Part shown: in pieces, positions 248 to 62,764 of the stretch
Numbering within the stretch: position 1 is the first letter of the stretch
How the letters are laid out: each line of letters opens with the position of its first letter
Assembly: GCA_020403455.1 (NCBI GenBank)
Contig: JADBXP010000019.1
Span: 1-64,000, forward strand
Direction: 5' to 3'
Source of the DNA: Chitinophagaceae bacterium
Lineage (GTDB): Bacteria; Bacteroidota; Bacteroidia; Chitinophagales; Chitinophagaceae
DNA length: 64,000 nucleotides
Notes under the pieces: model-generated
Told to the model about the DNA's origin: nothing
Database searches by the model: none
Seen by the model: only the letters and a program-made list of their open reading frames with translations
Made by a program: the position numbers and the translations under genes

Positions 248-1444
248 ATGGTTAAAGTTAAAATATTCGTTTTTTTATTAGTTATTATAACTATAAATCC
301 TTTTTGTTCTACAAAACAAAGAGCTAGGATAATAAATGAGAATGAATTCACAGATTTACCAATTACAGAAAATTTAAAAAAAATACTTTATTTCGGAATT
401 GAAACTAAAGTCGATTCGTCAAATTTCTTAGAAATGGCAGTTCATAGATTGAATTTATCAGATTATGCCGGATGTTTAAATATTATGAAAAAATCTATGA
501 ATCTTGATACTATTTGGTGTAATGGATTTTATGGATTTACAAACCGAGAAAAGGTTCCTATATGTAGAGAATTAGAATATTTGTTTTACAGGATAAACCA
601 ATATAATAATGATTTAGATCCATGGCATGTTAATTTGGTTCCTATTGTAAATCCAGAAGATTCAATGTTTGATTTTTTTACAATGGAAGGAGATTTCTTT
701 ATAGATTATTTTAAATTGACAAATAGAAATAGACCAGAAGAAGTTCTAGTTATAGCGAAAAAGTTAAAGAAAAAATATCCATTAAGTAAACGACTTGATT
801 TTATTATAGCATCTGAAAGTTTAATCTTAGGGGATGAATATTTAGCTTTTAAAATATTTGATAATTTAATTAGTCAAGATTATGCTGTTTTTGAAATAAT
901 AAAGTTTGTATTAAAGAATACTATTTTTTTAAAAAGTACTAATAAAATTATAGATTATACAAATCATTTTCATGAAAGATTTTCAAATTATTTTTTGTTA
1001 AATGATTCTTTGAGAGTCAATAGTATACAAGCAGCAATAGAATATTGCTCCCAAGCAAGCAAAACAGGCTCTCAAAGAGAGTATAGATTAGCAAGATTAT
1101 TTACTGCTAATTTTTTATTAGAAAATGAAGATTATTTTCATTTTGATTCAATTTCAAGTGTTTATTATTCTCAACCATGGGTTGTTAAAATGGATACAAT
1201 TCAAAAGAAAGAGGAAATCTTTTTCAAATATTCACAGTTAAAGAGTTTTTTTAAGCAGAAAAAATTTGACAATGCGTGTTTATTTATCAAAATGAATGTT
1301 GGTAGTATTGACATTTCATTAAATATATTAGATAAAGGAAGTTATAAGGATTTTATCAAGAAATTTTACTTTCAATTTGTGTCAACCGACCTACATGAAT
1401 TTGAGAAAATTTATAAAGATAAATTTGAAGCCTGCTTTGATTAG
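248..1444 (+). CDS. Hypothetical exported protein, possible orphan immunity protein
   Basis: This encodes 398 aa with a hydrophobic N-terminus (KIFVFLLVIITINPFC) ending in a cysteine, so it is a signal peptide and possibly a lipoprotein, although the lipobox is not canonical. The rest is rich in Lys, Phe, Ile and Asn and predicted mostly helical, with TPR-like spacing around residues 160-230. I do not recognise a named family. It is much more AT-rich than the core genes. It stands directly before the first RHS repeat block, the position that immunity genes occupy in the two following cassettes, so it may be the immunity gene of a tip lost to the IS66 insertion. That role is inferred from position only. 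Confidence 0.7.
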   Translation: MVKVKIFVFLLVIITINPFCSTKQRARIINENEFTDLPITENLKKILYFGIETKVDSSNFLEMAVHRLNLSDYAGCLNIMKKSMNLDTIWCNGFYGFTNREKVPICRELEYLFYRINQYNNDLDPWHVNLVPIVNPEDSMFDFFTMEGDFFIDYFKLTNRNRPEEVLVIAKKLKKKYPLSKRLDFIIASESLILGDEYLAFKIFDNLISQDYAVFEIIKFVLKNTIFLKSTNKIIDYTNHFHERFSNYFLLNDSLRVNSIQAAIEYCSQASKTGSQREYRLARLFTANFLLENEDYFHFDSISSVYYSQPWVVKMDTIQKKEEIFFKYSQLKSFFKQKKFDNACLFIKMNVGSIDISLNILDKGSYKDFIKKFYFQFVSTDLHEFEKIYKDKFEACFD

Positions 1445-1584
1445 ATGGGTGTGCTATTTTTCTAATAAATTTTCAATAAACTAGATAAGACTAAATTATG
1501 TATATTTTATTAGCATAATCATTATTGCATTTCATGTGAAAATGGTTTTTTTGTATATCCCACAACCCCAACTCCATACTCACT

Positions 1585-1930
1585 CTGCTTTTTCCTTCAG
1601 GAAAAAGTAGTAACTTCGGTAAGCACCGATAGCAAGCAGCGTGAAGTTGGCTATTGGGGTAAGCAGATCTTTGAATTACTGAGCAGTCAATAGTGTTCAC
1701 ACTATGGCTGCTGCGAAGTAATCACCGAGACCAACGCCTATAATAGATTTTACCGAGGTAACTGAGCAACCATTTGGGGAATGTACTTGCCACCATTACC
1801 GATAAAAAGCTGCAGGTAAGCACCAACAACAGCAGTACCAGCTACTTTGAAGCGGAAGTACAATCCGTGCAGGATTATTATGCATTCGGTATGCAAATGC
1901 CCGGCAGAAAATCGAGTGGTGGGTATCGGT
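1585..1930 (+). repeat. RHS homology block, copy 1
   Basis: This is the first of three near-identical blocks (others at 3475 and 8407). It starts at CTGCTTTTTCCTTCAGG. Read in sense it is decayed RHS coding sequence (STDSKQREVGYWGKQIFELL, then a TAG stop, then EVITETNAYNRFYRGN, then a frame change into NHLGNVLATITDKK). The last part runs into the open frame of the HNH tip. The in-frame stop and frame change show that it is not a functional N-terminus; it is best read as a homology arm or pseudogene segment. Confidence 0.8.
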
Positions 1931-2886
1931 ATGGGTTTAATGGAAAGGAGAATGATAATGTTACAGGTGAAGGTAATTTGGATTTTGGAGTAAGAATTTT
2001 GGATGTGAGATTGGGCAGGTGGTTAAGTGTCGATCCTGCTTTTGGTGAGCTCCCTGGTAGTTCACCTTACTGTTCGTCGTTAGATAATCCGATTATCCTA
2101 GTAGATAAAGATGGTAAATTCCCCATTGTACCATTGCTCCTTAAAATGGCAACTGCCGGTGCCTCTGATTATATGACACAAGTTGCAATGAATTATTTCT
2201 TCAATGACGCTACTAGAGGAGATATTAGTAAATCGGTTGCAACAGAAAATATTAATTTTGTACAAGTTGCCCGTTCAACTGTTGAGGGTGCGATCCCTTG
2301 GAAAACTCCGGGTGGTAAATTGGGTAAAGCTGCAGCAACCGCTCTAGGAGATGTAATTTATAATTATGGGGAATCTTTAGTTAAAAGTAAAGAATATACA
2401 ACTGAACAAGCGGTTACAGATTTTGCAACTGGTTTTATAAGCGATTTGGCAGGAGGCGAGATTGGAGGTCTAATCTCTAAATACGGGGCTAGAGGTTTTG
2501 CAAAAGGCCTATCCAAAATGGGGTTTGATGATAAGAAAATTGAAGAAATTTTAACAGGTGCCGGAACAACTTGGAAAGGGGCAGTTGATTATTCTGATTT
2601 AGATCTTACTGATAAGATGGCACATACAAGGGGGGTTGGTAAAGATTTTACAACTAACCAGAAAGATAAAATAAAAAAATTGAACAAGGACAAGAATAAT
2701 GGGTATCTTAGAAGTGATAAAGATGGAAGTTTTTTGGAGAAAGGAAAAGCGGGTGGAAACAACACTATACAAGCTGAGGTTGATCATAAGCAAGCAAAAA
2801 AACACAAAACAAATCCAGGAACAAATAAATTTAGTAACGCTCAGCTATTATCAAGAAAACAAAATGGTGCGAAAAGTAACAATTAA
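1774..2886 (+). CDS. Orphan RHS C-terminal tip with HNH-nuclease-like toxin domain
   Basis: This is a 370-aa open frame without a convincing start. The track start is TTG inside NHLGNVLATI, and an in-frame TAA lies 14 bases upstream, so it is a truncated or silent tip. Residues about 25-115 are the RHS-associated core (YYAFGMQMPGRK, YRYGFNGKEND, RLGRWLSVDPA, VDKDGK). A Gly/Ala-rich helical linker follows (about 120-260). The last 60 residues contain DHKQAKKH and the N-x-x-x-N-AQLLSRKQNGAK pattern, which matches the His/Asn core of HNH endonucleases. The toxin would cut nucleic acid in a target cell. The next gene starts 2 bases after the stop, as for a toxin-immunity pair. The RHS call is firm; the nuclease call is likely. 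Confidence 0.8.
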   Translation: MGNVLATITDKKLQVSTNNSSTSYFEAEVQSVQDYYAFGMQMPGRKSSGGYRYGFNGKENDNVTGEGNLDFGVRILDVRLGRWLSVDPAFGELPGSSPYCSSLDNPIILVDKDGKFPIVPLLLKMATAGASDYMTQVAMNYFFNDATRGDISKSVATENINFVQVARSTVEGAIPWKTPGGKLGKAAATALGDVIYNYGESLVKSKEYTTEQAVTDFATGFISDLAGGEIGGLISKYGARGFAKGLSKMGFDDKKIEEILTGAGTTWKGAVDYSDLDLTDKMAHTRGVGKDFTTNQKDKIKKLNKDKNNGYLRSDKDGSFLEKGKAGGNNTIQAEVDHKQAKKHKTNPGTNKFSNAQLLSRKQNGAKSNN

Positions 2887-2888
2887 TT

Positions 2889-3413
2889 ATGCAAGAAAAC
2901 TTTAAAGAATTTAAAAAAATATTAGAGGGTCGTAACGATAAGAAAGCTAAAAAGATATTGTTAGAATATCAACAAGAAAATAAAAAAGAAATTATCGATT
3001 TCATATTTTCCGAAATCAATTCTGATTTAATACAAGATGGACTTATTTTAAAATATTCTGTACACACTTACTTTAGGTTAAAAAGAACGTCTTTAAATGA
3101 TGTCAATCCATTATTTGACTTTGTTACAGAAATTTCAAATATAAATGAAAGTTTATTGGAAGTTCTTGGATATGATAAAATGGTGCCACCAATCGAAGAG
3201 CAAGAAAAAATTATAAAAAAATATTTTCATTTCGGTGATGGTATTGACTACCGCTACTTTTCAGACCCACGTTATGGATTAGCGGCAGCTTGTGCAGGTT
3301 GGGATAAAGAGATAGTTAGAGATTTTTTAAATCATTGTATAGCAACTGGAGATGTACCACTAAAATATGTTTCTGAGAACTCCCTTAAAGGAAAATATGT
3401 AAAGTTGCGATAA
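2889..3413 (+). CDS. Candidate immunity protein for the HNH-like RHS tip
   Basis: This encodes 174 aa with no signal peptide. It is predicted nearly all alpha-helical (FKEFKKILEGRNDKKAKKIL at the N-terminus, later DFLNHCIATGDVPLKY) and acidic to neutral. I do not recognise a named family. It begins two bases after the toxin tip stop and is followed at once by the 30-nt cassette border repeat. A cytoplasmic location fits protection against a nuclease. The immunity role is inferred from position, size and compartment. Confidence 0.75.
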   Translation: MQENFKEFKKILEGRNDKKAKKILLEYQQENKKEIIDFIFSEINSDLIQDGLILKYSVHTYFRLKRTSLNDVNPLFDFVTEISNINESLLEVLGYDKMVPPIEEQEKIIKKYFHFGDGIDYRYFSDPRYGLAAACAGWDKEIVRDFLNHCIATGDVPLKYVSENSLKGKYVKLR

Positions 3414-3415
3414 AG

Positions 3416-3446
3416 TGAAGTAGTTAAGACTTAATCTGACAGTTAC
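3416..3446 (+). repeat. Cassette 3' border repeat, copy A
   Basis: TGAAGTAGTTAAGACTTAAT and the following TCTGACAGTTAC lie 2 bases after the first immunity gene. The same segment with two or three changes lies behind the second immunity gene (5584-5613). A weak relative (TAGATAAGACTAAAT) is visible near 1479 behind the 398-aa gene. Confidence 0.75.
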
Positions 3447-3474
3447 ATCCCCACACTCAAACTCCACTCTCAAA

Positions 3475-3850
3475 CTGCTTTTTCCTTCAGGAAAAAGTAG
3501 TAGCTTCGGTAAGCACCGATAGCAAACAGCGTGAAGTGGGCTATTGGGGCAAACAGATCTTTGAATTACTGAGCAGGCAATAGTGTTCACACTATGACTG
3601 CTGCGAAGTAATCACCGAGACCTACGCCTACAATAGATTTTACCGAGGTAACTATCCAATCACCTTGGTAACCAGCATGTCCCGACTCTGTCGGGAGTAT
3701 TAGTTACCATTTCCGATAAAAAGCTGCAGGTAAGCACCAACAACAGCAGCACCAGCTACTTTGAAGCGGAAGTACAATCCGTACAGGATTATTATGCATT
3801 CGGTATGCAAATGCCGGGTAGAAAATTAAGTGGTGGGTATCGGTTTGGGT
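3475..3850 (+). repeat. RHS homology block, copy 2
   Basis: This is the second copy of the block, again starting CTGCTTTTTCCTTCAGG. It is very close to copy 1, including the in-frame TAG after ELLSRQ and the frame change at RGN. It differs by a 24-nt insertion at 3673-3696. It fills most of the gene gap 3414-3804 and merges into the lipase tip frame; no separate gene is seen in this gap. Confidence 0.8.
3673..3696 (+). repeat. 24-nt palindromic insertion inside RHS block 2
   Basis: CAGCATGTCCCGACTCTGTCGGGA interrupts the HLGN|VLVTISDKK coding text that is continuous in copy 1. It contains the 17-nt inverted repeat TCCCGAC-TCT-GTCGGGA. Its length is a multiple of three, so the frame is kept. 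Confidence 0.7.
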
Positions 3851-4740
3851 TTAACAGTATTGAAAAAGCAGATGAGATAAGCGGTACTGGAAACCATTAC
3901 ACAGCTTTGTTTGGAGAATATGACCCACGAATAGGTAGGCGTTGGAACAAAGACCCCAAACCCAATACTTCTTTAAGTGTTTATTCAATGTTCAGCAATA
4001 ACCCTATTTGGTTTAGTGATATTGCATTAGACACACCGACAGTTAAGGAAGCAGCATTAATGTCTAAGTTGGTGTATGGTGATAAACTGACCAAAGAAAA
4101 TCAAGCTGAATTTGATAGGTCTGGGTGGAAATTATCAAATGGTGTACAAGGCTTAGAGTATGAAAAAAAATCTGGTTTTAAGTCTGCTTTATTTGAAAGA
4201 GCAATTAATGGTAAAATAGAATATACACTTGCTTTTGCAGGAACTGAAGATATTGGTAAAGATGGAGTAGCAGATTTGAAGCAAATATTAGGTATGTCAA
4301 AGCAATATAATGAAGCACTAAAAAATGCAAAAGATATTTCTACTGCTTTAGGAGGCAAAGAACTTACATTTACAGGACATTCTTTAGGAGGAGGCTTAGC
4401 AAATGCGTCTGCACTATACACAGGCAAAGCTTCACTTACATTTAATCCTGCTTGGGTTTCTACTGCTACAATGGTTAGATATGGATTGTCCTTTAAGCCA
4501 CAGTCAGGTTTAAGCAATTATGTAATTTTAGGAGAAATTTTAAATAGCGTTCAGCAAGCTGCTAATCCTAATCCCATACCACAAATGAACCTGTTACAAA
4601 ATGTAGGGAAAACACATTATTTATATTCTGCCTTACCATTAGTACCTATTTATGGCACATTAAAAAGCCACTCAATTGATAAAGTAATTGATGAAATTGA
4701 GGATGTAAAAAAATATAATACCGTAAAGGATGGTCAATAA
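3805..4740 (+). CDS. Orphan RHS C-terminal tip with class 3 lipase-like toxin domain
   Basis: This is a 311-aa open frame. The ATG at 3805 lies inside the RHS core (MQMPGRKLSGGYRFGFN), and the same frame stays open upstream to about 3660 without a start, so this is a tip and not a full gene. Residues 1-75 are RHS core (YDPRIGRRWNKDPKP, SVYSMFSNNPIWF). Residues about 85-240 look like an alpha/beta-hydrolase of the lipase class 3/Mbeg1-like type: LAFAGTED (oxyanion region), then TFTGHSLGGGLANASALY with the GxSxG nucleophile elbow. It should hydrolyse phospholipid or another ester in a target cell. It overlaps the ankyrin lipoprotein gene by 11 bases. Confidence 0.82.
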   Translation: MQMPGRKLSGGYRFGFNSIEKADEISGTGNHYTALFGEYDPRIGRRWNKDPKPNTSLSVYSMFSNNPIWFSDIALDTPTVKEAALMSKLVYGDKLTKENQAEFDRSGWKLSNGVQGLEYEKKSGFKSALFERAINGKIEYTLAFAGTEDIGKDGVADLKQILGMSKQYNEALKNAKDISTALGGKELTFTGHSLGGGLANASALYTGKASLTFNPAWVSTATMVRYGLSFKPQSGLSNYVILGEILNSVQQAANPNPIPQMNLLQNVGKTHYLYSALPLVPIYGTLKSHSIDKVIDEIEDVKKYNTVKDGQ

Positions 4741-5542
4741 AATATTTGTTCTTCTTTTTGGTATTTTATTATTGCACTCCTGCAATACCACAAATTATTT
4801 ACCCGGATTTGATTTTAAACTATTCAGCAATAGCCCAGTTAATAAGCTGGCAACGGCAGTAGAAAAAGAAGACGTAAAAAAAATAAATGAGCTATTAAAA
4901 GACAAGTCTATAAATGTGGATTATAAAGAACCAAAGTTTGGGCACACGTTATTAATGCTTGCAGTTGCTAATAATAAAACTCAATCTGTTGAAGCTCTGC
5001 TCAAGAATAACGCAAATCCAAATTTAACTTCAAAGGGAAATGAAGATAACTCTGTTACGATTGCAGCAGAAAACTATTCTGACGTATGTGATACCGCAAT
5101 GTTAAACCTATTAATTAACTATGGTGGAAATATAAATTTCATTCAACACATTAACAGAGTCGAGAATAGCGGAATGGCTTCAATAGTAAATAGAACTACA
5201 TTGATGATTGCGGTAAGGAATGATTGTTATTTGATAGCAAAATATTTAATTGACAAAGGAGCAAAAATTAATGAGTATACTTATTACGAAGGTTATGGTG
5301 CAATCACAGATGCAATTATTCAAAATAATTTAAAAATTGCGAAATATTTAATTATAGACAAACAAGCCATCATACCGCCGTACATTTTTAAACGGCAAGC
5401 AAATATTAGTTATAAAGGCGAACCTGAAGAATATTTAACCGTTACCGATTTACTGAATGAGCAACCGTATGAAAAAGGAACAGAAAACTATAAATTAAGA
5501 GAAGAAATTATTAGCTATCTAAAAAGTAGAAATTTAAAATAG
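4730..5542 (+). CDS. Ankyrin-repeat lipoprotein, candidate immunity protein for the lipase tip
   Basis: This encodes 270 aa. The N-terminus MVNKIFVLLFGILLLHSC is a lipoprotein signal with the lipobox cysteine at residue 18. Residues about 40-200 contain ankyrin-type repeats (GHTLLMLAVANNKTQSVEAL, then RTTLMIAVRNDCYLIAKYLI). The start codon lies inside the end of the lipase tip gene (11-base overlap), giving tight coupling. Periplasmic ankyrin-type or lipid-anchored immunity proteins are known for lipase effectors, so the pair makes sense: the toxin acts at the envelope and the immunity protein is anchored there. The immunity role is inferred. Confidence 0.8.
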   Translation: MVNKIFVLLFGILLLHSCNTTNYLPGFDFKLFSNSPVNKLATAVEKEDVKKINELLKDKSINVDYKEPKFGHTLLMLAVANNKTQSVEALLKNNANPNLTSKGNEDNSVTIAAENYSDVCDTAMLNLLINYGGNINFIQHINRVENSGMASIVNRTTLMIAVRNDCYLIAKYLIDKGAKINEYTYYEGYGAITDAIIQNNLKIAKYLIIDKQAIIPPYIFKRQANISYKGEPEEYLTVTDLLNEQPYEKGTENYKLREEIISYLKSRNLK

Positions 5543-5583
5543 AATTACTCTGCAAAAAAGGCGTTCGGATATTCAAAATAATC

Positions 5584-5613
5584 TGAAGTAGTTAATACTT
5601 AATCTTACAGTTC
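5584..5613 (+). repeat. Cassette 3' border repeat, copy B
   Basis: TGAAGTAGTTAATACTTAAT and the following CTTACAGTTC lie 42 bases behind the ankyrin lipoprotein gene. It matches copy A at 3416-3446 with a few changes. The stretch from here to 5743 holds no recognisable gene. Confidence 0.75.
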
Positions 5614-5743
5614 CTCTTTCACCCTCATTTCCCCCTGTAAGCAATAATCCTTTCCTGGGTCTTCGCAAAAAGGGGAGGATGCCCTCCAAGTCGCAAAGTG
5701 TCCACCTCCATCGGGCGTATTAGCCCTTTGCCATTTGAAGCGG

Positions 5744-6139
5744 TTATTTTCCAATAAAGGAATAAGGATCCCAAACCTGTAGGCCCTCAATTTTCTTAAA
5801 ATCAGTTGTATTATGGGAAAGCAAAATGCAGTTTTTCACTATAGCTGTGGCTGCAATAATGGCATCAGGTAATTTTATTCGTTTCATTCTTCTAATCTCA
5901 ATAGTTTTATCTGCAACGGCTTCATCTATATATTCGATTGAACTAAGCTGAATAAACGATTCGAGCTGCTCCAGCTCGTATTCTTGCGTGTTAAAACCTA
6001 ACACTTCTATTTTAGATATGATTGAAACCGAGAAACAACTATTAAAATAAATATCTAATTGTTTAGCTGATTTTTCAGGAATTCGATTACTCACATAATC
6101 TATAATTACATTAGAATCCACAAGCATATTCATTTCCAA
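5744..6139 (-). CDS. PIN-domain toxin, VapC-like (pair 1)
   Basis: This is a 131-aa PIN-domain protein. The acidic residues expected for Mg2+-dependent RNase activity are visible: VDSN near the N-terminus, Glu in SKIEVLGF (about 45), Asp in LPDAIIAATA (about 92) and Asp in NTTDFKKI (about 112). As a VapC-type toxin it would cleave RNA and stop growth when its antitoxin is lost. It overlaps the stop of the upstream antitoxin gene by 10 bases. It is paralogous to the pair at 6679-7277. Confidence 0.85.
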   Translation of the reverse strand: MEMNMLVDSNVIIDYVSNRIPEKSAKQLDIYFNSCFSVSIISKIEVLGFNTQEYELEQLESFIQLSSIEYIDEAVADKTIEIRRMKRIKLPDAIIAATAIVKNCILLSHNTTDFKKIEGLQVWDPYSFIGK

Positions 6140-6357
6140 CCTTCCCTACTTCGCTTAATTTGGTCCTGTATTTTTTTTCCTGATTCTTTGCTGATAGCAC
6201 CCCTATAGTCGGAAGGCTTTTTTGTACCAGAACGACTAGGCATAACCTCGACCTTTTTTTCTGAGGGCATCTTAATCAATTGATTGGATGCTAATTCTTG
6301 AAGAACCTTCATTGCTTTTTTGCTTACAATATCAATAGTTATGCTTTGCATGCTCAT
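6130..6357 (-). CDS. Antitoxin of PIN pair 1
   Basis: This is a 75-aa protein beginning MSMQSITIDIVSKKAMKVLQ. The short beta strand plus helix (SITIDIVSKKAMKVLQELAS) is shared with the second antitoxin at 7071, and the basic C-terminus ends in a Trp-Lys tail (REGWK/RNDWK in the two). It comes first in the operon and overlaps its toxin by 10 bases. It should bind and neutralise the PIN toxin and probably repress its own promoter. The specific antitoxin family is not recognised. Confidence 0.75.
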   Translation of the reverse strand: MSMQSITIDIVSKKAMKVLQELASNQLIKMPSEKKVEVMPSRSGTKKPSDYRGAISKESGKKIQDQIKRSREGWK

Positions 6358-6536
6358 TAGTTTAAAAATATTTTACCCTTCTTCACAAGTGTCCAGCTTT
6401 CAGAACCAAGCCCAATTATAAATGAGTATACAATTGCGCATAATCAAAATGATAGGTAATCAGCACCAAGCCTAATTCTGCATCCTTATTCAGTACAAAA
6501 GTATTTATTTTTTAAAATGCATGTGTAGTGCTTGTA

Positions 6537-6668
6537 TCAGGTATTTATACTCTTTCTAATCCACCACCGGCTACTGTAAGTAGGTGATCGAGCCGACGGC
6601 TCTATACCCCTCTCCACTCTCATACCCGTCGTTACACTAACTCCAAAACTAAGCGTTAGAGCATACTC
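6537..6668 (+). repeat. Repeated border segments between TA modules
   Basis: Two sub-segments recur nearby. TATCAGGTATTTATACTC followed by CCACCACCGGCTAC (6537-6585) matches 7360-7400. The stretch from GAGCCGACGGCTC through CTCATACCCGTCGTTACACT to GCATACTCAAA (6590-6668) matches 8312-8394 with scattered changes. They contain the small palindrome GAGCCGNCGGCTC. They look like debris of the RHS blocks between inserted modules. No gene is seen in 6358-6678. Confidence 0.65.
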
Positions 6669-6678
6669 AAATAATACC

Positions 6679-7080
6679 CTAATTAGCTTCGAATTCAAAC
6701 GGGTCAATCAATGATAAACCCTTTATTTTTTTGAAGTCAGTCCGATTGTGCGTTATTAGGGTACTTTTACATACAATCGCTGTAGCAGCAATGATGGCAT
6801 CGGGTAGCTTTGTTTTATACACTCTTCTTATACTTATAGCCATATGCTTTACTTCACGCTCCAGGTCTATAATTACAGCATTATTTACAAATCCACTAAG
6901 GATTTTCCAGTCATTTGCATCAGCTGAATCCCAGCAAAGTAGTTCCATTTCTGAAATAACGGAAATAGCGGGTTGTTCGTCTTCTAATATCCGATCTATA
7001 TATTCCGCTGCATTTCTGGGGAACTGATTCTGCAAAAAATAAATGGCAGTATTGGTGTCCCACAAATAATTCATTTCCAA
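6679..7080 (-). CDS. PIN-domain toxin, VapC-like (pair 2)
   Basis: This is a 133-aa PIN-domain protein similar to the one at 5744. Acidic residues are visible in LWDTNTAIYFL (Asp, about 8), ISEMELLCWD (Glu, about 46), LPDAIIAATA (about 94) and NRTDFKKI (about 114), so the RNase site looks intact. It overlaps its antitoxin gene by 10 bases, exactly like pair 1, which suggests duplication or related cassettes. Confidence 0.87.
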   Translation of the reverse strand: MEMNYLWDTNTAIYFLQNQFPRNAAEYIDRILEDEQPAISVISEMELLCWDSADANDWKILSGFVNNAVIIDLEREVKHMAISIRRVYKTKLPDAIIAATAIVCKSTLITHNRTDFKKIKGLSLIDPFEFEAN

Positions 7081-8091: not shown

Positions 8092-8406
8092 ATTTTGCAC
8101 CTTACATAATTCCGTCTACTAGTAAAGAGGCGTAGCCTCGACATAAACTGCAACAATGGATTTTAATCCGTTGTTGGATGGCAAGTAAGATACAAAGAGA
8201 GGCCGATATAGTTGATAACAAAGCACATAAATATGCATAGTGCCTACAGCACTCTTTACGTTAGGTGCTTGAAGCTGCAAGGGATTAAAATCCTAGGTAT
8301 ATATAAAATCGAGCCGCCGGCTCTAAACACCTTCTCCACTCTCATATCCGTCGTTACTCTAACTCCAACCTTTAGCGTTGGAGCACACTCAAACTCCACT
8401 CTCACA
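8092..8406 (+). other. Intergenic region with palindromes
   Basis: No gene is seen. The stretch contains the near-perfect inverted repeat CAACAA-T-GGATT-TT-AATCC-G-TTGTTG (8151-8176), a small GGATTTTAATCC-like core repeated as GGATTAAAATCC near 8281, and the second copy of the GAGCCGCCGGCTC border segment (8312-8394). It looks like an accumulation of REP-like repeats. Confidence 0.6.
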
Positions 8407-8567
8407 CTGCTTTTTCCTTCAGGAAAAAGTAGTAGCTTCGGTAAGCACCGATAGCAAACAGCGTGAAGTGGGCTATTGGGGTAAGCAGATCTTTGAATTA
8501 CTGAGCAGGCAATAGTGTTCACACTATGTCTGCTGCGAAGTAATCACCGAGACTTAAGCCTACAATA
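8407..8567 (+). repeat. RHS homology block, copy 3 (truncated)
   Basis: This is the third copy of the block, starting CTGCTTTTTCCTTCAGG and including GYWGKQIFELLSRQ and the same in-frame TAG. Identity ends at GCCTACAATA near 8567, before the RHS core, so no toxin tip is attached. A UPF0175/PIN toxin-antitoxin module follows instead. Confidence 0.8.
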
Positions 8568-8660
8568 ATGATTGTTCAGGAAACCAAGTTGTAGTCTTGC
8601 GTTTTTAATATTCCTAGACCGTTATAACAACCTAAATTCCTAGTAATAAATTATTTTTTG

Positions 8661-8900: not shown

Positions 8901-9348
8901 AATTATAATTTCAGACACTAGCTGTCTTATCATACTTTCTAAAATCAATGAACTTGATTAATTACGTAGGATGTATGGTAAAGTAATTACAACTGCTGAA
9001 GTTGCTGACGAGTTCGGGGAAAGTCTTCCCGAATGGGTTGAGATTAGAATAGCATCAGATGCTTATCGACAAAGAATTTTAGAATTACAAATCAATAAAG
9101 GAGAAGCAAGTACCATAGCTTTGGCAATAGAACTTACTGATTCCGCAGTTATTTTAGACGATTATAAAGCTCGAAAAATTGCAGAGAGCTTAGGTATTCC
9201 AATTATTGGTACTATCGGCGTAATTATTTCCGCAAAAAAACTGGGAGTTATTGAATCAATAAAGCCATACCTTCAAAAAATTCGTCAAACCAATTTTCGT
9301 ATTTCAGAGGAAATAGAAAAGCGGGCACTTGAAGAATCAGGCGAATGA
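8893..9348 (+). pseudogene. DUF3368 PIN-like toxin, interrupted by a nonsense codon
   Basis: From ATG 8893 the frame reads MSKIIISDTSCLIILSKINE and then meets TAA at 8959-8961 before continuing in the same frame (LRRMYGKVITTAEVADEFGE, NKGEASTIALAIE, AVILDDYKARKIAE, IIGTIGVI) to 9348. This is the full DUF3368 pattern with one internal stop. The ORF track starts at the downstream ATG 8971, which lacks the first catalytic Asp (ISDTS). The first ATG overlaps the UPF0175 stop by 8 bases, which supports 8893 as the original start. A sequencing error is possible but nothing else is out of frame. Confidence 0.82.
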
Positions 9349-60594: not shown

Positions 60595-62007
60595 ATGAAT
60601 ATCCGTGCCAATGCCTATTACCGATTTAATGGTGCTAGTGCCGGTATGCCATCCAATCCGTTCAATGAATTACTGGCAGCTTTGGCAACCAGTATACAGG
60701 GGGTAACGGGTGGCAAGTTTGGATTGCAGCAGGGGCAGAGTTCGAGTGTGCTAGGGCCGGGCATTACCGACCTCTTACAACGCCAAACCGATCAATCCAC
60801 TGGCAGCACTCGACCAAAGGCATTCCTCAATTGGGTATTGTTGGATGAGCAGTTTAAAATCGTAAACACCTCCACCGGTTTTGAGCCTGTGGGTTCCGAC
60901 GTGGAGTTTAAAACCTTTGTAAAAACCGGTTTGCCGATTTCACAAAATGGGTATCTTTATGTGTACACGAGCAATGAGAGTCCGGTTGATGTGTTCTTTG
61001 ATAATTTACAGGTTACGCATGTGAGAGGGCCTCTTCTCGAAGAGTCGCATTATTATCCGTTTGGGTTGACGATGGCAGGCATCTCCGCAAAAGGTGCCGG
61101 TAAAACCGAGAATAAATTCAAATACAACGGCAAAGAATTACAGAATAAAGAGTTTAGTGATGGTAGTGGGTTGGAGTTGTATGATTATGGGGCGAGGATG
61201 TATGATGGGCAGATTGGTAGGTTCTTTACACAAGACAGGTATGCAGAAAAATATTATGCGGGCAGTCCTTACAGCTATGCTGCAAACAATCCAATAATGT
61301 TCATTGATGTAAATGGCGATAGCATAAATGTGGCTGAACAATATAGAGGACAATTTGGGCAAGCTCTTGAAAGTGTCTTTGGTGCAAACTCAAAGAATTT
61401 TAGTTACAATGCGTCCGGCAATCTTATTTATAATGGGGACACAAAATCCTTTAGTAAGGAAGAGTTGGCTGTATTCAATCAGATGAATGGTGTTATGGGT
61501 GAATCAACAATAACCAATCTTATCTATGAAAGCAGCTATACATTTAAGGATAAAGAGGGTAATTCAATTACAATTGACCCGAGTAAATCTGGTGGCGAGG
61601 GAACCCTTGTAGCAAAAGAAAATCCTACTCTTACTAAGAATTATATAATCATTGACCCCAAAGCTGCAACAACTCTTACAGGTGTTTATGAAGTTACTGA
61701 TGGATATTATAATCATAAAAGAAACGGTACTCTTCCAAGACCGACTGACCCGCCTAACATTAATATCAATAATAGTGTGACAACTTCACCTGGAAATTTA
61801 ACGCTGCATGGAATAGGACATATTATTAATGGTGGAAAGCGGCAGGATAGGGTATTAGACTTTGATAATGCTACCAGGGCAATCAATAAGACAAAGAATG
61901 CTGATGGAACATTTACGCCTAGTCCATTGACACCAAGAAAGTACGATGAAACCCATAACAAAACTGTTATTAAAGGTTCGGGTTCATTGGGAGATAAGAG
62001 AGATTAA
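60595..62007 (+). CDS. 5'-truncated RHS protein with metallopeptidase-like tip
   Basis: This is a 470-aa protein. The first 150 residues look like the middle of a large RHS/DUF6443-type protein ([20 protein letters not shown]) without a signal peptide, so the gene is 5'-truncated. RHS core is about 155-240 ([58 protein letters not shown]). The C-terminal tip has [20 protein letters not shown] followed by DFDNATR, which resembles a zinc-peptidase toxin with HExxH and a downstream ligand, but the catalytic Glu is Gly (codon GGA). The tip may be inactive. Confidence 0.82.
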
Positions 62008-62026
62008 TAAATCAACTTCATGTGCT

Positions 62027-62764
62027 ATGTATAATTTAAAGATGTTTGCTTGCAATTTGCTATTATGCATAACTACTTCTTTTGCTTTTGCTCAAACTAG
62101 TAGGACTGAATATTGTGCATGTAAAGAAGGTGATGAAATACAGGAGATGACTAAAGTTTATCCTGATAGTTTATACACTAACTATAGTCTGGATGCAACA
62201 GGCTTTGTAATTACCATCATCAATACAACTAAAGACACTTTGTATGTTTTTAATAGTTATATAGAGCCATCATTTTTAGGTTCGAAGTATCTGCATCGAA
62301 TTAACTCAAAAGATAAGTTATACAAAGTATCATTCTTGCCTTTAGTCCCTTATGTGTTTACGAAATACTCTGATGTTATAACAGATGAACCAATCATAGG
62401 TAATCATCAGATTGTGTATAATTTTTTTAAACTTCCACCAAGTACAACCCAAAAAATTAAGTTATCATACAATGATTTATTTAAAAGCAAAAACTCTGTG
62501 AGAAATGTCTCAAAAGATTATGATGTAAAGACCTTACATAAGTATAGCAAAAGATTACCACTGAAGTTTTGCACTACAAGCAACTTGAAAGGAAAATATA
62601 ATTTGCAATTTGAATTTGCTGTTTACAAAGCTATAGATCTATTGTGTGAACAATCCGCCTATTATTTACGAGAGCAGGTTTTTGATAAACAATCAAAAGA
62701 CTTTAAAATACTAATTGTTCCTGTAGAACTTGGCAACTATGAGTATCCGTTACTAAGCAAATAA
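62027..62764 (+). CDS. Exported candidate immunity protein
   Basis: This is 245 aa from ATG 62027, or 240 from 62042; the track start at 61946 overlaps the RHS gene and hides a signal peptide (MFACNLLLCITTSFAFAQ). The mature part is mixed with several cysteines near the N-terminus (YCACKEGDEIQ). No family is recognised. It lies 19 bases behind the RHS tip, so it is the expected immunity gene. Export implies the toxin acts in the periplasm. AT-rich like other cassette genes. Confidence 0.75.
   Translation: MYNLKMFACNLLLCITTSFAFAQTSRTEYCACKEGDEIQEMTKVYPDSLYTNYSLDATGFVITIINTTKDTLYVFNSYIEPSFLGSKYLHRINSKDKLYKVSFLPLVPYVFTKYSDVITDEPIIGNHQIVYNFFKLPPSTTQKIKLSYNDLFKSKNSVRNVSKDYDVKTLHKYSKRLPLKFCTTSNLKGKYNLQFEFAVYKAIDLLCEQSAYYLREQVFDKQSKDFKILIVPVELGNYEYPLLSK

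What the first reader, a model, noticed from the sequence alone, without database searches (positions are those of the whole stretch)
3805..5542. Lipase RHS tip paired with an ankyrin-repeat lipoprotein
GHSLGGG in the tip and a lipobox plus ankyrin repeats in the overlapping next gene make a coherent envelope-acting toxin and envelope-anchored immunity pair. The 11-base overlap supports coupling.
Basis: partly seen in the sequence, partly recalled or inferred. Interest (0 to 1): 0.6.

Follow-up and report, generated by a model that had tools for sequence, protein, structure and literature searches.

The report
Orphan RHS lipase tip with ankyrin immunity
This is a spare toxin cassette, a membrane-lipid-cutting enzyme domain followed by its ankyrin-repeat antidote, of a type already known from enterobacterial injection systems but here cut off from any delivery protein next to a bacterial RHS toxin array.

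Summary
Window 3805-4740 encodes an RHS-core fragment plus a class-3 lipase domain, overlapping by 11 bases an ankyrin-repeat lipoprotein gene (4730-5542). The lipase is homologous to the crystallised Enterobacter cloacae T6SS phospholipase Tle (proposed Tle6; 7UBZ; profile E=1e-34 over the whole domain, next PDB hit 4e-4), including its unusual Ser-Glu-His triad. Tle6 enzymes are reported to be always encoded with ankyrin immunity proteins. In 12 of 12 related loci examined, on RHS, PAAR/DUF4280-type and prophage carriers, an ankyrin gene follows the lipase. The ORF lacks the RHS shell and export signal, and its upstream core is broken by an 86-bp stop-containing insertion. The only full RHS gene found that shares this core (another contig, 2556 aa) carries a metalloprotease-like tip. 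The core repeat (147/161 bp identical, same frame) could allow a tip swap, as shown for Salmonella rhs orphans. Unlike Tle, the RHS-borne form has no homologous helix carrying the Arg180 of Tle's activating glycation crosslink. Ordinary new member of a known kind; toxicity and protection are untested.

The parts
3475..3500 (+). shared left junction of the orphan cassettes: imperfect palindrome CTGCTTTTTCCTTCAGGAAAAAGTAG; present at all four orphan starts, absent from the intact RHS gene
3490..3565 (+). RHS core block A, matches the full-length RHS gene on contig C27
3566..3651 (+). 86-bp insertion with stop codons, found only at orphan cassettes on C11; breaks the RHS reading frame
   Evidence: stops
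3672..3696 (+). about 24-bp in-frame insertion with hairpin CCCGACTCTGTCGGG, unique in the window
3697..3857 (+). RHS core block B, 147/161 bp identical to the intact RHS gene and in the same frame; candidate site for tip exchange
3805..4740 (+). orphan RHS C-terminal fragment: RHS core end (weak Rhs_assc_core, terminal DPxG replaced by DIAL) followed by the lipase tip
4042..4737 (+). Tle6-like class-3 lipase toxin domain; triad Ser193 (4381-4383), Glu244 (4534-4536), His289 (4669-4671)
   Evidence: triad of Tle from PMC11470151
4730..5542 (+). ankyrin-repeat lipoprotein, predicted cognate immunity (Tli-like); lipobox Cys18 at 4781-4783
5578..5627 (+). cassette right-border repeat, matches 3410-3459 after the preceding cassette (78%)

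Best explanation
The locus is a displaced (orphan) RHS C-terminal toxin/immunity cassette. The toxin domain is a Tle6-type class-3 phospholipase with a Ser193-Glu244-His289 triad. The overlapping gene encodes its ankyrin-repeat lipoprotein immunity, which would sit on the periplasmic side of a membrane and cup the lipase. In its present form the tip has no shell or export signal and is probably silent. The cassette is kept as a source of immunity and as spare ammunition: homologous recombination in core block B could place the tip, in frame, on the main RHS gene. Shown: gene content, homology, triad, conserved pairing, orphan state, in-frame repeat shared with a full RHS gene. Inferred: phospholipase activity, periplasmic action, neutralisation, silence, and exchange with the main gene.
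For: The tip's best structural relative is 7ubz_B, T6SS lipase effector Tle (phmmer E=1.3e-9; family profile E=1e-34 over chain 49-307, next hit 4e-4). [quoted passage not shown] the window residues align to that triad. An ankyrin gene follows the lipase in 12/12 relatives: six RHS (L014, L018, L019, L020, L021, L037), four PAAR/DUF4280-type (L015, L022, L038, L064) and two other viral/prophage loci (L053, L057). Distances of lipase and ankyrin correlate (Mantel r=0.84, p=5e-5, 12 pairs). Orphan state: no full RHS gene upstream; the core is interrupted. The only full RHS gene found with this core is on C27, with another tip. Block B is shared with it in frame. Precedent for orphan rhs tips silent until fused by recombination: PMC3967940; as a reservoir: PMC3150448.
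Against: No activity data. The AlphaFold models were single-sequence and too poor to use (pLDDT 41 and 47). C27 and C11 are separate contigs, so linkage of the orphan to the main gene is not shown. The terminal DPxG of the RHS core is changed to DIAL here, so a fused product might not be processed normally. No T6SS sheath gene was found (uninformative because its controls did not ring), and how this kind of Sec-signalled RHS protein is delivered is unknown.
Confidence: 0.8

Rival explanations
1. Decaying relic: the tip is a dead fragment and only the ankyrin gene is functional, as an orphan immunity gene against neighbours that still use the lipase.
For: No signal, no RHS shell, interrupted core. 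Solitary ankyrin lipoproteins without a lipase exist in relatives (L034, L035, L036, L042). L020 shows a lipase tip in the same setting with a broken frame.
Against: The lipase frame is open over its whole length with the triad intact, and relatives at 27-45% identity keep both genes.
Confidence: 0.35
2. The ankyrin protein is also an activator: a cytoplasmic pool lets the lipase be modified before export, as Tli does for Tle in Enterobacter.
For: Tli-dependent methylglyoxal crosslink Arg180-Lys461 is required for Tle activity (PMC11470151; PMC10294624). The window has a Lys at the matching distance, His+13.
Against: The homology begins at chain residue 49, about residue 208 of Tle, so helix 1 with Arg180 has no counterpart in the RHS tip; the Lys is absent from the other 12 relatives.
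Confidence: 0.15
3. An unrelated housekeeping or secreted lipase next to an unrelated ankyrin protein.
For: Class-3 lipases and ankyrin proteins are common, and the Pfam lipase score is below its cut-off.
Against: RHS core fused in frame, 11-base overlap, 12/12 conserved pairing, best match to Tle; more distant class-3 lipases from the same search (e.g. L054, L055, L060, L061, L066, L068) show no ankyrin gene next to them.
Confidence: 0.03

Closest known systems
Tle/Tli of Enterobacter cloacae (proposed Tle6 group; PDB 7UBZ, 9CYS; PMC11470151)
   Same: Class-3 lipase fold by homology, Ser-Glu-His triad, conserved lid-region sequence, ankyrin-repeat lipoprotein immunity encoded directly downstream.
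   Different: Carried as an RHS C-terminal tip in a genome with no T6SS sheath gene found; no counterpart of helix 1 / Arg180; orphan, without a delivery module.
Orphan rhs-CT/rhsI modules (Salmonella LT2, Dickeya, Yersinia; PMC3967940, PMC3150448)
   Same: Core fragment plus tip plus immunity gene, with a repeat shared with a main rhs gene and no export signals of its own.
   Different: A Bacteroidota RHS family (DUF6443 N-terminus); shorter shared repeat (161 bp at 91% against 522 bp at 95% in LT2); a stop-containing insertion in the orphan core; linkage to the main gene not shown.
Polymorphic toxin cassettes with Imm-ank immunity (PMC3482391)
   Same: Toxin-then-immunity gene order, standalone cassettes, ankyrin repeats as immunity.
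   Different: That survey lists Imm-ank beside Tox-AHH nucleases; in the passages read, the lipase type described there is DUF2235-like Tox-ABhydrolase-1.

Membership tests
Tle6 lipase effectors | Sequence homology to E. cloacae Tle across the lipase domain | tested here: met
   Profile E=1e-34 over chain 49-307; single sequence E=1.3e-9
Tle6 lipase effectors | Ser-acid-His triad in GHSLGGG, GE(I/L)L and C-terminal HxI contexts | tested here: met
   Ser193, Glu244, His289 align with the Tle triad
Tle6 lipase effectors | Ankyrin-repeat immunity gene directly downstream | tested here: met
   12/12 relatives
Tle6 lipase effectors | Delivery by a type VI secretion system | tested here: inconclusive
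   No VipB in the genome; Bacteroidota TssC search had no working control
Tle6 lipase effectors | Arg180-Lys461 glycation crosslink residues | tested here: not met
   No homologous Arg-bearing helix 1; a Lys at His+13 is present. Shown only for E. cloacae Tle, so not strictly defining
Tle6 lipase effectors | Phospholipase A activity and neutralisation by the ankyrin protein | not testable with these tools
   Needs biochemistry
Orphan rhs-CT/rhsI module | Core fragment plus tip without shell or export signal, immunity gene following | tested here: met
Orphan rhs-CT/rhsI module | In-frame repeat shared with a full-length main rhs gene | tested here: met
   147/161 identical, same frame
Orphan rhs-CT/rhsI module | Located downstream of the main gene | tested here: inconclusive
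   Main gene on C27, orphan on C11; C27 ends inside another orphan core, so a contig break in the array is likely but unproven
Bacterial lipoprotein (immunity) | Signal peptide with lipobox Cys | tested here: met
   LLHSC at Cys18, Cys column shared by 11 of 13 family members; His at -2 is atypical

The most novel reading that the evidence does not exclude
RHS-borne Tle6 lipases form a branch that has dispensed with the immunity-dependent glycation crosslink: they lack the helix that carries Arg180, the crosslink partner would lie in the RHS core beyond the tip boundary, and they are active without ankyrin-assisted modification or use another way of fixing the C-terminal helix.
Probability: 0.45. 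Interest if true: 0.45.

Novelty: new member of a known kind. Interest (0 to 1): 0.3.

Why it matters
It extends the lipase/ankyrin pair known from an enterobacterial T6SS to RHS tips and orphan RHS arrays of Bacteroidota. It shows the pair moving as a unit between three carriers (RHS, PAAR/DUF4280-type, prophage). It also offers natural variants lacking the crosslink helix, which makes it testable how general immunity-dependent activation of this lipase group is.

Tried and rejected
Structure prediction of each protein alone gave pLDDT 41 and 47, so no fold search was run. The Bacteroidetes promoter pattern TTTG-N-TAnnTTTG gave no site near the genes; sigma-70-like hits were not clearly above shuffles (25 against 18.2 +/- 4.5), so silence or expression is not decided. 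The ankyrin profile against the PDB returns generic ankyrins and cannot single out Tli. The genome-contig search found only an identical contig of a MAG (L017, 4144/4144). Phage records: no match. Synteny to join C27 and C11 was not pursued because the flanking genes read on C27 are variable repeat proteins. The idea of a generic secreted lipase was rejected on the pairing and homology data.

Full report
Observation. The first carries GHSLGGG. The second carries an N-terminal hydrophobic segment ending in LLHSC and ankyrin repeats (Ank_2 E=7e-16). The Pfam lipase hit is marginal (E=2.6e-4, just below the curated cut-off), so the motif alone would not have settled the matter.

Identity of the tip. 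A single-sequence search of solved structures puts one protein far ahead: 7ubz_B, the T6SS lipase effector Tle of Enterobacter cloacae (E=1.3e-9). A profile built from nine homologous tips matches the same chain over residues 49-307 at E=1e-34, with the next structure at 4e-4. The published Tle triad is Ser341, Glu393, His448 (PMC11470151). With the chain offset of 159 worked out from the alignment, Ser and Glu fall on window Ser193 and Glu244, and the C-terminal His of the HxI motif on His289. The acid is Glu or Asp in the family; the window has the Glu form, like Tle.

Identity of the partner. Tli, the immunity protein of Tle, is a lipoprotein of six ankyrin repeats that binds the lid helix of the lipase, and the authors state that Tle6 lipases are invariably encoded with ankyrin immunity proteins (PMC11470151; PMC10294624). 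In the relatives fetched here, an ankyrin-repeat gene follows the lipase in 12 of 12 loci: RHS tips L014, L018, L019, L020, L021, L037; PAAR/DUF4280-type L015, L022, L038, L064; and two other viral/prophage loci, L053 and L057. The Cys of the lipobox falls in one alignment column in 11 of 13 members including the window. Distances between lipases and between their ankyrin partners correlate (Mantel r=0.84, p=5e-5, 12 pairs); shared ancestry of the whole cassette explains this as well as co-adaptation, but either way the two travel together. More distant class-3 lipases in the same viral search have no ankyrin neighbour. The downstream residues NTTNYLPG show no acidic cluster of the kind that, from general knowledge of Bacteroidota lipoproteins, sends them to the cell surface, so a periplasm-facing location is the better guess (inference).

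The tip is not the end of an RHS gene. The open frame reaches back only to about 3650 and no start precedes the ATG at 3805. Upstream is a copied piece of RHS core (3490-3857) interrupted by an 86-bp insertion with stops; the same insertion sits at the same site in the cassette before (1554-3413) and in a remnant at 8376-8603, and nowhere else in the genome. The only full-length RHS gene found that shares this core is on contig C27: 2556 aa, a signal-peptide-like N-terminus, DUF6443, an HESFGHAV metalloprotease-like tip and its own 155-aa partner. C27 ends inside one more orphan core. All orphan starts share a palindromic left junction absent from the intact gene. Core block B is 147/161 identical between main gene and orphan and in the same reading frame. 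I did not build the joined sequence. Arrays of the same kind surround the lipase tip in L014, L020 and L037.

Mechanism. Orphan rhs tips in Salmonella are silent until recombination in a shared 522-bp repeat fuses them to the main gene (PMC3967940), and orphan modules are seen as a reservoir of toxin and immunity diversity (PMC3150448). The anatomy here fits that model: the ankyrin gene can serve as standing immunity, and the lipase as a spare warhead. Shown here: content, homology, triad, pairing, orphan state, shared in-frame repeat. Inferred: activity, compartment, neutralisation, silence, exchange. A caution is that the DPxG motif at the end of the RHS core reads DIAL in the window, and the Rhs_assc_core match stops short of it and is below its cut-off.

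Difference from Tle. Tle must be crosslinked Arg180-Lys461 by methylglyoxal, with cytoplasmic Tli, to be active. The RHS-borne tips start where homology starts, about residue 208 of Tle, directly after the RHS core, so they have no homologous helix carrying Arg180. The Lys equivalent (His+13) exists in the window but in none of the other 12 relatives. This suggests the RHS branch does not use that crosslink, which is testable.

Novelty and verdict. The pair is a new member of the known Tle6/ankyrin immunity kind, in the known setting of an orphan RHS cassette. It is a solid annotation with one specific testable difference. No T6SS sheath gene was found (the Bacteroidota-type TssC search had no working control); a T9SS SprA gene is present, but nothing here ties it to RHS export.

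Noticed in passing
window 1554-3413: A second orphan cassette directly upstream: RHS core piece, tip ending in an HNH-nuclease-like stretch (EVDHKQAKKHKTNPGTNKFSNAQLLSRKQN, by eye) and a 174-aa partner with no family match.
   Followed up: partly
window 3566-3651, also about 1676-1763 and 8498-8567: 86-bp insertion with an ATAGTGTTCACACTAT palindrome at the same place in three orphan cores, absent from the intact RHS gene and the C27-edge orphan; one insertion copied with the cassettes, or a functional element.
   Followed up: partly
window 1585-1610, 3475-3500, 8407-8432; L004 192-214: Palindromic left junction shared by all four orphan starts, suggesting one founding truncation event followed by tip exchange or cassette duplication.
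   Followed up: partly
L004 852-8522 (-): Full-length RHS gene on contig C27 with a metalloprotease-like tip (HESFGHAV) and a 155-aa secreted-looking partner overlapping by 4 bases; no Pfam family for tip or partner.
   Followed up: partly
window 60595-62764: Another RHS core fragment with an unrelated tip (470 aa) and an overlapping 272-aa gene; best Rhs_assc_core score in the genome, yet no long RHS body in its frame.
   Followed up: no
window 248-1444: 398-aa protein with a lipoprotein-like N-terminus (INPFCSTK) and no family match, just before the orphan array; possibly immunity of a lost cassette. The contig starts in what looks like an IS66-type transposase end (by eye).
   Followed up: no
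window 5744-7080 and 8971-9348: Two PIN-domain (VapC-like) genes and a DUF3368 gene next to the orphan array, an island of small mobile or defence-like modules.
   Followed up: no
L034, L035, L036, L042: Solitary Tli-like ankyrin proteins without a lipase neighbour in the same order, candidate orphan immunity genes.
   Followed up: partly
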